The notes under the pieces were generated by a model. The model had not been told where the DNA came from. It ran no database searches and saw only the letters and a list, made by a program, of their open reading frames with translations. Positions 38,496-45,300 of a DNA stretch of 64,000 nucleotides are shown piece after piece. The first letter of the stretch is position 1. Each line of letters opens with the position of its first letter. The translations under genes and the position numbers were made by a program. The stretch covers positions 124,001 through 188,000 of the forward strand of contig CM030725.1 of the NCBI GenBank assembly GCA_018127085.1, read 5' to 3'. Source of the stretch: Pneumocystis sp. 'macacae' (lineage: Eukaryota > Ascomycota > Pneumocystomycetes > Pneumocystales > Pneumocystaceae).

Positions 38496-39088
38496 AATAA
38501 ATTTATTCTAAATCCCGTATTGATCTGTGTATTAAAATAAATATTTTTCAAATATTTCAGCAGTTTCTAAAAATTCTTCCTAATTCTTAAACAAAATATC
38601 GCAAAATAATAACAAAAAGAGAGGGAAAAAATCTAATTAAAACAAAGATCTAGCCCAAAGTTTCAGTAGTATAAAAACAAAAAATTCTTATTAAATGCGT
38701 ATAAAACCTTAAATATTCGCCAAACCTTCCTAAAAATAAAAAACTATTAAAATAATGTTTTTGCAATAAAAAGATTTTGTAATTTTCTAAAATGATCAAG
38801 TAAGCTAAACATTTAAGTATTGCCATAACAACTACAGTTTCCATGGCGATATCTACATTCAAAAATTAATATTATTGTTATAAAGAACAATATTTATAAT
38901 ACATATTTCATGGGAAAAAGCACACTAAAGACGACTTCTATGGATTTTTTTCCAGATAATAATTACTCCTGTCCAACATATCTTTGCCAATATATTGTCG
39001 TGTTACCCTGACAACTTATTACCAAGCAAGAAATGTTCTATTTTTGATACTTCTAAAACTGTCTCTGTAACAACAGCACGAGTAAAGT
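38496..39088. promoter_or_regulatory. Divergent upstream region of the Sec14-like gene and DAM1; left edge of the GC island
   Basis: 593 nt between divergent start codons. The left part is as AT-rich as the rest of the window. GC content rises from about 38930 onward and becomes high at the DAM1 start, so the compositional boundary lies within or at the end of this gap. No gene recognised. Confidence 0.5.
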
Positions 39089-39710
39089 ATGCCCTCTAAG
39101 CCAAGATCACGGCCAACAACACCATTAAGGCGGATTGAAAAGGGAGGATTGTCGCATTTGTCGGCATCATGGAGCCGTCAAGACCCATTCCCTCTTGATG
39201 CACTTGCACCAGCATTTACAGAAATGGCAGATGCGTTGACAGATGTACAGCACAACTTTGAACATATACAGTCGATTCATGCAAACCTTGTGCAGTTTAA
39301 CGAAAGCTTTGCTTCGTTTCTGTATGGACTTAATATGAATGCCTTTTGTGTCGATTTTCCCGAGGTTAAAGCACTTGCTAGTCGTATTTTTATAATTACT
39401 ATTTTAGGCCCCTGTCCATCAGTCATTTAAACGTGCAGAAAATAACACCCATTGCACAGACACCTCCTATTCCGGCATATTCAGTGCACCCGGCGCTGCA
39501 CCACCCAATGTCTCTAGCCACCTAGATGTATCTGCCGATACAACTTTCACCACAAACGACACCTCTTTCGTTGAGCATCCATCACACAATACACGCCAAA
39601 CACGCACACTGCCCCAAAAAACATCAAAGTCTGCCCGCTCTTCGCGCCAGTCTTTCAAACCCGCTGCACCACAGACCGTCTCGTCCACCACCCGGCCACG
39701 TTATCGGTGA
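39089..39710 (+). CDS. DAM1: DASH/Dam1 complex subunit Dam1
   Basis: Microtubule-ring component that couples kinetochores to spindle microtubules in fungi. The protein starts MPSKPRSRPTTPLRRIEKGG, with the conserved Dam1 core LAPAFTEMADALTDVQHNFE, HIQSIHANLVQFNESFASF and LYGLNMNAFCVDFPEAPVHQ. The last block is joined over an intron at 39364-39407, giving PEAPVHQSFKRAEN. The C-terminal half is Ser/Thr-rich and ends TTRPRYR with a stop at 39708-39710. It is short, about 190 residues, a normal size for non-budding-yeast Dam1. Codon third positions are clearly richer in G and C than in the genes to the left, because the gene lies in the GC island. It converges with HNT1, 107 nt apart. Confidence 0.92.
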
Positions 39711-39817
39711 GGTCACGTGACCCGCACTTTGCAAGGGACAGGCTAAATACACTCATAGACAAACAATCTATATACAGGCAACTACGGCATCCCGCACACC
39801 CGCTCCCGAGCATGCAC

Positions 39818-40391
39818 TCAACACTGGCCGAGCTGTTTTCGGATCTCCTCCGCAACACTTCGGAGCACGTCTTCCTCAACAGCCTTGGCTGCATCAAACC
39901 CAAGACGAAGACCCTCAGCGGCCGTCGGCTTTGGGATAAGGTGGAAATGCACCTTTTCGACTGTCAGAAGCACAGTTGCATCCACAATTAGGAATCCTTA
40001 CATGGTCAACCACCTGGTGTGCAAGCCGCCCATTATTCTGCACCCACTTAGCCCTCCCTGTGCAGCCCCACGTGCCACATGGCACGTCTCCGCCTCCATA
40101 CCTGCAATATGTTGTAGTCCTCAAGACCCATCGCATTGACAAGCCGCTTTGCAAGAGGCAGGAGATCGCCCAGAGATGCATCACTCAGCTGGTGCATCTT
40201 CTCCGCATGCTCCTTCGGAACAACCAGTGCATGGCCCCTGCTCAGCGGCCGTATGTCCAGAAACGCAAGTCTACACCACTCAGCGCACACATGCAACCCA
40301 TCGGGCCTCACGATCTCTCGGTTTCATAGAGCTTCAATGCCGCCATCTCCCCTGCAACAATCTTGCAGAAAATACACTTGATAGATGCCAT
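39818..40391 (-). CDS. HNT1: HIT-family nucleotide hydrolase (Hint/Hnt1)
   Basis: A purine-nucleotide phosphoramidase of the histidine-triad family, probably hydrolysing AMP-lysine or AMP-NH2 type substrates. Spliced protein: MASIKCIFCKIVAGEMAALK LYETER, with the CxxC pair typical of Hint proteins; then FLDIRPLSRGHALVVPKEHA, KMHQLSDASLGDLLPLAKRL, NAMGLEDYNILQ, NNGRLAHQVVDHV and HFHLIPK. The last two pieces rebuild the catalytic HVHFH triad, split by an intron exactly between V and H. The end is EEIRKQLGQC with a stop at 39818. Three introns are inferred, each 32-65 nt with good donors (gtgagg, gtatgg, gtaagg). The gene is GC-rich like its neighbours. Confidence 0.93.
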
Positions 40392-42286: not shown

Positions 42287-42320
42287 CGGGGGAGAGGGGG
42301 GGGAGGGGGAGAGGAGGGGT
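42287..42320 (+). other. G-quadruplex-type G-run cluster between convergent genes
   Basis: Directly after the p24 stop codon the + strand reads gcgggggagagggggggg and then agggggagaggagggg. There are at least four runs of four or more G with short loops, a canonical intramolecular G-quadruplex pattern. It lies in the 100-nt gap between the convergent p24 and UBP15 stop codons, so it may affect termination or replication. This is a structural prediction only. Confidence 0.7.
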
Positions 42321-42388
42321 AGTTAGATATCTATTCTACAAGTGTGCAATGCAGTGTGCAGGACCCAGGGGGCATGGATGGGGGAGGG

Positions 42389-45300
42389 CTATCCTCTGAT
42401 GAAGACGGCCTTTTCGCCATACCTGCCGGAGCGGACAGTTTTATCCAGGTGGTCTAGCCCAAGGAGGTCGTCGGAGTTGTTTGAGATGTCGTATATGACG
42501 TCGTCTGGGGGGGTTAGAAGCAGAGGGGGGCGGGGGAGGTACCGTCGTCCAGGTAACGCGGTTTTACAAACGAGGTCTGCTGAACAAGTGCGTATTTTAT
42601 TTTTCCAGTGTCCTTTTCCTTCAAGCCCGTCCGCTTCAAGAGTCTTAGTTTTGTCTGACTGAATTTTTCGTTCTAAAAGATAAAGAAGGACGAAAGAGGA
42701 GAGAGTCTTACCGGCTTGATGATGAATCGGAAGGGGATGCCGTGGGACCGAGTTGGTTCTCGCTGGAAATGATATACGTTGATGTATTGGTCGTTTTCGT
42801 CCAAAACAAGCTCGTTTTCAGGTATCAGTTCTGCGTATAGAAGGAGGAAGTCCTGCAGTGCAGTAACGGGATATGTAAGATCGAAATCCTTATAGATTCT
42901 GTTTGAATGGACGCCAAACATGTGAAAACGATCGGCTAGTTCCTGGGACAAATTCAATTTGAGTATTAAAGATTGGACGACATCTTTCAGCGTCCCTGTC
43001 TTGGGAACAAGGACTTCTACAAGTTCCTAACCATTGGTTATGTTAATGAATCAATTATCACGAGACCCCGACTTCTCTTGTTATACCGTCCGGTAGCCAT
43101 CCGACCTTCAAAATTCGTTTGGTTTCGAGTTCATTAAGGCTTATCTCTAATACTTCATAAAACAAAGTATTTAGCGGAGACTGTAAGTATGCGGGCTGAA
43201 GAATATTTTGCAAAGTCAAGGAAGGGGCTCTTTTTACTGCAAATTTAGGCATTTGAGTTGTAGAATTAACTGTTGTAAAGCGGATATGTGTCGGCTCAAC
43301 GTTCAAATATTCACCTACTTTAAAAGATAACTAAATGATTAGTGTGATTCTAGAGATAATAATTGCAGTGCTATACCATGTCATATGTTGTCTTCCTGCT
43401 TAATACTAAATCAAACTCCTCTGTTATATTTTGATCAACAAATCTTGGTTTAAACGACACATTTATTTTATTTAATAAGAAATCATAATACTCAACAGTT
43501 GATCCATAGCCTCCATTGGATACAATTTTTTCAGTCCTACTGGTATTAGAGATAGAAAAAAATATATTCTTTTTTTAGCAATACTCTTCTTCTGAAATAA
43601 CTTTTTGAAAACAAATAATATCACCATCTTGTATCTCTGCTTGATAAAACGTCTGCTTTAATTTCATTGCTTCAATCATAGTTGGTTTAATCTCCTGCAC
43701 ACATTTGATTAAACAATTATTGAAAAACAAACAAAATATACTTCATAAAGCTGGATTGATGTTGTAAAAGGCCAATTCATTAAAGAACATATAATAGAAG
43801 TAAGTATACTAATTTTATCATGTTTGTTAATATAAATATGTGTAATTCCTTGCAATGTTTGTTTTTCAATATCAAAATATTTCAAAAATATAAGAATTTT
43901 TGTATTGCCCCCTGTACCGTCTAAAGAATTCCATGCTTCTAAAAAACTTTCTTCAGGAGTTACAGAAAATGACTCCATATACAATAACAAATCACCTCTA
44001 CGAGGAAACATTTTATCTCTAATCATCTCCAATGCTTTATAAAATTAGCCAAGCTACATAGAAAAACTTGTATATACTTAGTGTCTGATCATTCTCAGAA
44101 ATAAGTGTATCTGGCCTAATAGTTTTGTTTTGTCGATTCACCATTACCCAGAACCTAATCTTATTAACATCGACTTCATAAGCTATAGCTATTTGTTTTT
44201 TAAATTCTGTAAACAACGTCTCTTTAAGAACTTTATGGGTTGAAAATTGAGAAACAGAAGGCTCTTTTTCTTCTATATTTGAAAGATCAAAACCTTGATG
44301 TCCTTTGAAATGATCATCTGTGACAATTTTTACATAAAGATATAAATGCATTTCCTCTCTTTCTTTTCTTCTTGCTTCTAAGGCAGCTTTTTCTGAGTCT
44401 AATCTTTTACCTAAATAATATCAACATTATTTTTACAAATCTTTAAATACATACGAAGATGTTCTGGTATATCTGATTCTACAACAGGTCTTAATATCTC
44501 ATCAAGTTCATTTTCACGAAAATAAACTAGCATATAAGCATTCATATATCTCTTTAACGAAGTATTACGAGAATATGGATTTTTTATGTAACTATTTGTA
44601 GGAGACATATCACCTCCAAAATTTTCATCAAGAACTTCTTTGAGCGTTGCCCTTGTTACTCTATCATCATCAAATTTATACCAATGACCATCTTTTTCTG
44701 GTTTAAGTAATGCATAATAATGACCGCCATGTAAATCACCACTGTGTACTAAAACTCTTTTAAAAATCAGTAAAATTACAATGTATAAAAACAATATACC
44801 CATATAATTTATATACATGTGGCTGGGATTTATTGGCATCATCAGATAAAAACTCCTCTAGATCTATTTCCAATGGAAATTCATGATGATCATTAATCTT
44901 ATAAAAGTTAATAAATAAAAATAAAATTTGATAGTAATTACTTTGACCATTGTATCACGTTGAATATCGTACTCAAACCTCTTTAATTGCAAATGCAAAA
45001 CTGGGGGAAATGATTGAAAAATAACACCCTTCTTTGCATCTTGAAGACCATATCCTTCTGCAAAATACTTATTATCACCATCTAATGTTTCAACTTGAAT
45101 ATAATCACGAAAAGATTCTTTAAGAGTTTTCATTCCTTTAACATTAAGTTGTATATCTAAAAATATAATAAATAAACTTTTAAAAAAAAGAATAAATACC
45201 CCAAAAATCTTCACTTCGAGATGATTCATAATCGACATTAACACATTTAATATAACTTTTCATTTTTCCTACAAATAATTTACTGAGTGCATTTTCTGCT

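What the first reader, a model, noticed from the sequence alone, without database searches (positions are those of the whole stretch)
39060..42650. Isolated GC-rich island with a central strand-skew switch
Seen directly: about 3.6 kb of high-GC sequence sits in very AT-rich DNA. The + strand is C-rich on the left (31 C vs 10 G in 40441-40500) and G-rich on the right (37 G vs 8 C in 41341-41400), and the excess changes sign near 40.96 kb, close to the midpoint. DAM1 (+) lies in the C-rich half; the Nrm1-like gene (-) and p24 (+) both lie in the G-rich half, so transcription direction does not explain the skew. A switch from C- to G-excess along one strand is the signature of bidirectional replication from a fixed origin. 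A long-lived recombination hotspot with GC-biased gene conversion is an alternative explanation for the high GC. Such a sharply bounded skewed island in this type of genome is, to my knowledge, not a standard described feature; the mechanism is inference.
Basis: partly seen in the sequence, partly recalled or inferred. Interest (0 to 1): 0.88.

Follow-up and report, generated by a model that had tools for sequence, protein, structure and literature searches.

The report
GC islands with strand-switching base bias
A lung fungus of macaques carries many short GC-rich DNA islands, each C-rich on one side and G-rich on the other, which may be marks of chromosome breaks repaired again and again at the same places; if so, they map recombination in a fungus that can hardly be cultured.

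Summary
The window is Pneumocystis macacae DNA. The island (GC 0.59 in about 28% GC DNA) turns from C- to G-excess at 40,949. GC-rich hits form about 57 clusters on 16 contigs. I read 34: 33 go from C- to G-excess, the other piece lies inside a G-rich half, none runs the other way. Transcription does not explain it: third-position skew follows the side of the switch in 27 of 27 gene-halves. A replication origin is unlikely: the skew ends within about 2.5 kb, and yeast origins have the opposite sign. At silent sites the rise is mostly C on one strand (C 0.79-0.83, G 0.03-0.04 at 0.7-1.5 kb), so symmetric GC-biased gene conversion is not enough. Best explanation: stable double-strand-break (recombination) hotspots whose repair favours C on the 3'-overhang strand; breaks and repair bias are inferred. 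Closest known: the skew and high GC of Candida albicans centromeres. Published Mis12 peaks in GC-rich P. macacae regions keep a kinetochore rival alive.

The parts
39387..42725 (.). GC-rich island, bounds by GC alone (500-bp smoothed GC above 0.45)
   Evidence: GC 0.59; left half skew -0.28, right half +0.37
39387..40948 (+). C-rich arm (plus strand = inferred 3'-overhang strand)
   Evidence: 100-bp bins mostly -0.1 to -0.5
40949..40950 (.). skew switch point, inferred centre of breakage; position uncertain by a few hundred bases
   Evidence: minimum of cumulative skew
40950..42725 (-). G-rich arm of the plus strand (minus strand C-rich = inferred 3'-overhang strand)
   Evidence: 100-bp bins mostly +0.2 to +0.6
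40485..40827 (.). alternating purine-pyrimidine tract rich in GCATAC-type words, of a kind found in many other islands
   Evidence: RY alternation above 0.75 in 100-bp windows; similar DNA in other islands
39089..39711 (+). DAM1 (two exons; intron ends read by eye)
   Evidence: PF08653 in the first exon frame; second exon frame read
39798..40391 (-). HIT-domain (HNT1-like) gene, spliced, ends read by eye
   Evidence: PF01230 in 40054-40323; other exons by eye
40952..41579 (-). Whi5/Nrm1-like gene, ends read by eye
   Evidence: PF08528 in the frame 40391-41833; exons
41627..42286 (+). p24 (EMP24/GP25L) gene
   Evidence: PF01105; homologues in P. jirovecii, P. canis, P. oryctolagi; third-position skew +0.59

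Best explanation
Each island is a long-lived site of recurrent DNA double-strand breaks, most likely a meiotic (Spo11) recombination hotspot. Breaks fall over a few hundred bases around the switch. Each end is resected 5' to 3', leaving a 3' overhang: the plus strand on the left, the minus strand on the right. Repair over about 2 kb on each side favours G and C over A and T and, on top of that, favours C on the overhang strand. Repeated over long times this makes the overhang strand C-rich on both sides, so the plus strand reads C-rich and then G-rich. A possible cause of the strand preference, untested here: C.C mismatches escape mismatch repair while G.G mismatches are repaired toward the donor, so G on the overhang is replaced more often than C. 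Shown: the islands, their common polarity, independence from gene direction, distance profile, one-strand C bias, accelerated GC-ward protein change. Inferred: the breaks, their meiotic timing, the repair bias.
For: 33 of 34 pieces read hold a C-to-G switch, none the reverse; 28 of 29 by GC-only midpoints. Pooled GC rises from 0.35 at 3 kb to 0.65-0.67 at the centre, with mirror-image skew of about 0.35 over the same 2-2.5 kb. Skew ignores gene strand in 27 of 27 gene-halves. At 4-fold sites the inferred overhang strand has C 0.45 within 300 bp, 0.79 and 0.83 at 0.7-1.5 kb, 0.13 beyond 2.3 kb: a mixed centre and polar flanks, as expected if break positions scatter. PMC7615360 (section 4 read) describes human hotspots with no strand asymmetry in the central 100 bp and strong asymmetry in the flanking 2 kb. 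A Spo11-family match is present (52.3 bits, cut-off 26). Clusters are more evenly spaced than random (CV 0.50 against 0.81; none of 5,000 random sets as even) and their number follows contig length (r 0.84). Protein change in island parts is fast and toward GC-coded residues on the P. macacae branch.
Against: No recombination, break or polymorphism data were available. The human mutation signature, as I read its text (C and A lost on the exposed strand), predicts C loss on the overhang strand, not gain, so a conversion bias or another mutation process must be invoked. The GC profile is a plateau with shoulders (Gaussian rms 0.018 against 0.035 for an exponential), not the exponential expected of simple conversion tracts. 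The effect is strongest in P. macacae; other species show weaker or no protein-level enrichment. At plus and minus 1 kb one of 23 islands has a V (25) shallower than the best background V (61). Some switches lie in coding sequence, unlike budding-yeast hotspots. Mis12 peaks in GC-rich regions point to another possible role.
Confidence: 0.6

Rival explanations
1. Kinetochore-associated or centromere-like sites, several per chromosome, with break repair or early replication at them leaving the skew.
For: C. albicans centromeres show a negative-to-positive GC skew with raised GC (PMC2924309, passages). P. macacae Mis12 ChIP-seq gave 4-6 peaks per chromosome that tend to lie in GC-rich regions, and the authors could not say whether they are real or artefacts (PMC10327204, section 9).
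Against: The same paper keeps one heterochromatin-flanked peak per chromosome as the putative centromere, and P. carinii and P. murina centromeres are single and 3.9% lower in GC. I find 2-6 clusters per contig, fewer than four on several. The peaks were not compared with the islands here.
Confidence: 0.12
2. Replication origins, each fired from a fixed point.
For: C-to-G order is the bacterial origin signature; mirror-image arms.
Against: Skew ends within about 2.5 kb; no positive arm in the right flank of the window (-0.087 over 10 kb); amplitude about eight times that of S. cerevisiae origins and opposite sign to yeast leading strands (PMC3459929); no reason for GC 0.65.
Confidence: 0.08
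3. Sites of recurrent mitotic breakage or fork collapse rather than meiotic hotspots, with the same repair bias.
For: Same geometry; composition alone cannot tell meiotic from mitotic breaks.
Against: Even spacing and numbers that follow contig length fit programmed breaks better; the census may be incomplete.
Confidence: 0.13
4. Transcription-linked mutation or R-loop skew.
For: GC skews tied to genes are known in fungi (title in a listing).
Against: Coding-strand skew reverses with side for both gene directions: 27 of 27 gene-halves follow the side.
Confidence: 0.02
5. Foreign DNA, contamination or an assembly artefact.
For: Abrupt change of composition.
Against: Island genes p24, TTI1 and MON2 have Pneumocystis orthologues as closest relatives, and the MON2 protein is deposited for P. 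macacae; GC-coded residues grade along single proteins out of the island.
Confidence: 0.01

Closest known systems
GC-skewed centromeres of Candida albicans and relatives (PMC2924309, passages; PMC3459929, section 16)
   Same: Negative-to-positive GC skew, returning to normal within about 3 kb, jump of 74% (here about 70%), linked to high GC, cause disputed.
   Different: There once per chromosome at centromeres (plus some telomeric sites), mainly intergenic, with an AT skew of opposite sign; here about 57 clusters, 2-6 per contig, over coding genes, AT skew small.
GC-biased gene conversion around yeast break sites (PMC3020949, passages)
   Same: GC raised near recombination initiation and falling over 1-3 kb.
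   Different: That model is strand-symmetric and exponential and the effect in yeast is mild; here it is strand-polar, with a plateau and GC more than doubled.
Human meiotic hotspots with strand-asymmetric mutation (PMC7615360, passages and section 4)
   Same: Symmetric centre and asymmetric flanks of about 2 kb, explained by resection.
   Different: Seen as rare variants, not as base composition; as I read it, C is lost on the exposed strand there, while here it is gained.
Runaway GC clusters of gerbils (PMC7403616 and PMC10210625, passages)
   Same: Genes trapped near stable hotspots gain extreme GC with fast protein change.
   Different: Megabase clusters; there 'GC skew' means GC bias, and no strand switch appeared in the passages I saw.

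Membership tests
Recombination hotspot with GC-biased conversion | Local GC peak of a few kb | tested here: met
   GC 0.35 to 0.65-0.67
Recombination hotspot with GC-biased conversion | Equal rise of G and C at silent sites | tested here: not met
   Inferred overhang strand C 0.66, G 0.12 pooled; 0.83 and 0.03 at 1.1-1.5 kb
Recombination hotspot with GC-biased conversion | Raised crossover or conversion rate at the site | not testable with these tools
   No population or pedigree data held
Recombination hotspot with GC-biased conversion | Break machinery present | tested here: met
   Spo11-family match PF04406 at C12:219969
Eukaryotic replication origin | Skew extending toward fork-merging zones | tested here: not met
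   Gone by about 2.5 kb; right flank negative
Eukaryotic replication origin | Early or efficient initiation | not testable with these tools
   No replication data
Candida-type skewed centromere | V-shaped GC skew with high GC over about 6 kb | tested here: met
   against passages
Candida-type skewed centromere | One per chromosome | tested here: not met
   2-6 clusters per contig; up to four read on one contig (C3, C8)
Candida-type skewed centromere | Bound by centromeric histone or kinetochore | not tested
   Mis12 peaks in GC-rich regions reported but not intersected with islands
Transcription-linked skew | Skew follows gene direction | tested here: not met
   27 of 27 gene-halves follow side, not strand

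The most novel reading that the evidence does not exclude
A strand-specific repair bias that keeps C on the 3'-overhang strand writes a C-to-G switch wherever breaks recur. The islands of P. macacae would then be a readable map of its recombination hotspots, with break centres to a few hundred bases, and the disputed skews at C. albicans centromeres would be the same mark. A one-strand C drive, perhaps from the blind spot of mismatch repair for C.C, would be a new, strand-polar form of biased gene conversion.
Probability: 0.33. Interest if true: 0.93.

Novelty: new variant of a known kind. Interest (0 to 1): 0.86.

Why it matters
Pneumocystis has no established long-term culture, and I know of no genetic map for it. 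If the islands are hotspots, one genome sequence supplies a map. It would show that biased conversion can be strand-polar, give a sequence-only test for stable hotspots in other genomes, and offer a non-replicative reading of the C. albicans centromere skew dispute. It would also warn that fast protein change in island genes need not mean adaptation, and may bear on the unexplained Mis12 peaks in GC-rich P. macacae regions.

Tried and rejected
Rejected or lowered on the evidence: transcription, replication origin, foreign DNA, one-per-chromosome centromere. Plain mutation at breaks (deamination of the exposed strand, Rev1-type C insertion into the resynthesised strand; both recalled) predicts loss, not gain, of C on the overhang strand. 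Exponential conversion gradients fitted worse than a Gaussian. A shared central element was considered: alternating GCATAC-type tracts reach 0.77 or more in 18 of 29 islands against at most 0.63 in 11 background blocks, but none of the five later pieces reaches it (0.59-0.72) and the tracts lie up to 1.5 kb off the switch, so they are companions, not the cause. A search with one tract from L041 found only itself. The S. pombe M26 heptamer (recalled) occurs once in the stretch searched, at 42,495: no lead. Conservation in other species could be judged only from proteins: in island parts of TTI1 and MON2 P. jirovecii is intermediate, P. oryctolagi and P. wakefieldiae partly so, P. canis and P. 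murina low; inconclusive. Two of my notebook figures are wrong: 19 of 29 islands with tracts should be 18 of 29; and MON2 and TTI1 should not be listed as genes inside which the skew flips, because their likely starts lie left of the switch.
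Full report
What the window is. It is contig C6, 124,001-188,000, of a genome of 8,274,841 bases in 19 contigs. A deposited protein of Pneumocystis sp. 'macacae' on a contig of 571,200 bases, the length of contig C3, matches the C3 frame in L037 at 100%, so this is P. 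macacae. PMC10327204 (figure legend among the passages) gives 16 chromosome-level scaffolds; the clusters below lie on C1-C16, which hold 8.2 of the 8.27 Mb.

The observation. By a GC-only rule the island is 3.3 kb with GC 0.59, C-rich and then G-rich, turning at 40,949. Its V is 266 deep against at most 52 in 5,000 shuffles and 117 in the best other block tried in the window.

A genome-wide class. Searches of the genome for long G/C runs, for paired G-runs and for DNA like the island centre gave hits in about 57 clusters, 2-6 per contig (clustered). Homopolymers and hits within about 12 kb of contig ends were left out, three listings were truncated, and 18 clusters rest on one copied position; 3 of those 18 were read and all 3 were islands. 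I read 34 clusters, window included. In 33 the piece holds C-excess followed by G-excess; in L050 and L056 one arm is only 0.5-0.7 kb long; L054 begins inside the G-rich half; none shows the reverse order. A few have small extra reversals, the largest in L028. With bounds set by GC alone, 28 of 29 have a negative left and a positive right half; the exception, L050, is cut on its left (the last five pieces were not in that test). Pieces were chosen by GC runs, G-runs or similarity, not by the order of the skew. In the pooled profile of 23, GC goes from 0.35 at 3 kb (few islands) to 0.65-0.67 at the centre, skew is about -0.35 and +0.35, and AT skew stays within 0.13 of zero. At 1 kb on each side 22 of 23 Vs exceed the best of the background (61); one does not (25). 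Only 7 of 29 islands were read uncut, a set biased to short ones: median 3.3 kb, switch a median 152 bp from the midpoint.

Not transcription. Of 40 long open frames scanned, 19 had a Pfam match (one, SUZ12-like, just under its cut-off). Eighteen of these, with DAM1 exon 2 (ends approximate) and p24, gave 27 gene-halves of at least 60 codons. Third-position skew follows the side of the switch in 27 of 27, for both gene directions (mean coding-strand skew -0.42 and +0.39 on the left, +0.50 and -0.41 on the right). It flips inside the UCH domain of L029 and between the two AAR2 domains of L040; in five other frames the part across the switch may lie outside the gene, and for MON2 and TTI1 it probably does. 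The switch was itself set from skew, so the sign near it is partly built in; the independence from gene direction is not.

Not an ordinary origin. The 10 kb left of the island have skew -0.189, the 10 kb right of it -0.087. PMC3459929 section 16 rejects replication as the cause of the similar C. albicans skews because they fade within about 3 kb and are far too large (74% against 9%), and reports A- and C-rich leading strands in S. cerevisiae, K. lactis and C. albicans, the opposite sign.

What is driven. In Pfam-matched stretches I read, at 4-fold sites, the strand that would be the 3' overhang if a break fell at the switch. Pooled over 2,061 sites (local GC at least 0.5) it is C 0.66, T 0.13, G 0.12, A 0.085, whether the gene lies on that strand (C 0.64) or on the other (C 0.67). 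A small background set, 477 sites in five window frames taken as genes without a Pfam test, has A 0.42, C 0.04, G 0.13, T 0.41 on the coding strand. By distance C is 0.45, 0.61, 0.79, 0.83, 0.57, 0.32, 0.13 and G 0.27, 0.16, 0.04, 0.03, 0.10, 0.09, 0.10 in bins ending at 300, 700, 1,100, 1,500, 1,900, 2,300 and 3,500 bp, with 3-9 islands per bin. Over 12 islands a bootstrap gives C 0.58-0.77 and G 0.06-0.19; the least polar are L052 (C 0.42, G 0.33) and L040 (0.46, 0.29). At 2-fold sites C:T odds are 7.9 and G:A odds 1.6, so A-to-G is favoured too, less strongly. The high GC is thus mainly a one-strand C drive on each side, mixed at the centre.

Effect on proteins. In MON2 the share of G, A, R and P residues is 0.43 in residues 1-150 in P. 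macacae against 0.19-0.36 in five other species; from residue 600 on the difference is small. In residues 1-600 P. macacae has 37 changes where the five others agree, P. jirovecii 12; in TTI1 26 and 18; the net G, A, R, P change is +14 and +13 in P. macacae, -2 and -1 in P. jirovecii. The strength is therefore partly lineage-specific.

Interpretation. A break at a fixed place with resection on both sides is the simplest event I know with a centre, two mirror-image arms of about 2 kb, opposite strands exposed on the arms, and no regard for genes. PMC7615360 section 4 describes that anatomy for human hotspots. Clusters are more evenly spaced than random and their number follows contig length, on an incomplete census. 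A Spo11-family gene is present. A listing shows PMC5821091, whose title suggests obligate sexuality in Pneumocystis. The rest is inference. C.C mismatches escape mismatch repair (recalled). If repair converts the broken strand to the donor, an overhang G facing a donor-copied G becomes C, while an overhang C facing C stays; this gives the observed sign. If repair restored the broken strand, the sign would be reversed.

Rivals kept alive. PMC10327204 section 9 reports 4-6 Mis12 peaks per P. macacae chromosome that tend to lie in GC-rich regions, and its authors could not say whether they are real. The islands may be those regions; I could not compare positions. With the C. albicans precedent a kinetochore link is not excluded. 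Mitotic breakage is possible too.

Novelty. In the listings of ten searches I saw no description of such islands in Pneumocystis or of a strand-switching composition at hotspots. I read passages of eight papers, not all the papers listed, and the library lacks most subscription papers.

Noticed in passing
window 40485-40827; islands such as L024, L036, L041, L042: Alternating purine-pyrimidine tracts rich in GCATAC words (possible Z-DNA): 0.77 or more in 18 of 29 islands, at most 0.63 in 11 background blocks; GCATAC 2.00 per kb in island pieces against 0.07 in the rest of the window.
   Followed up: partly
C3:306, C4:553169, C8:480287, C10:472864, C13:6509: The same 18-base G/C string recurs near five contig ends, perhaps a conserved subtelomeric element.
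   Followed up: no
L028 about 3000-4200: One island reverses briefly (+0.21, then -0.16 to -0.49) before its main switch: a tract effect or two break centres.
   Followed up: no
window 2001-3000, 11001-12000, 23001-24000, 55001-56000: Sharp AT-rich troughs with GC near 0.15.
   Followed up: no
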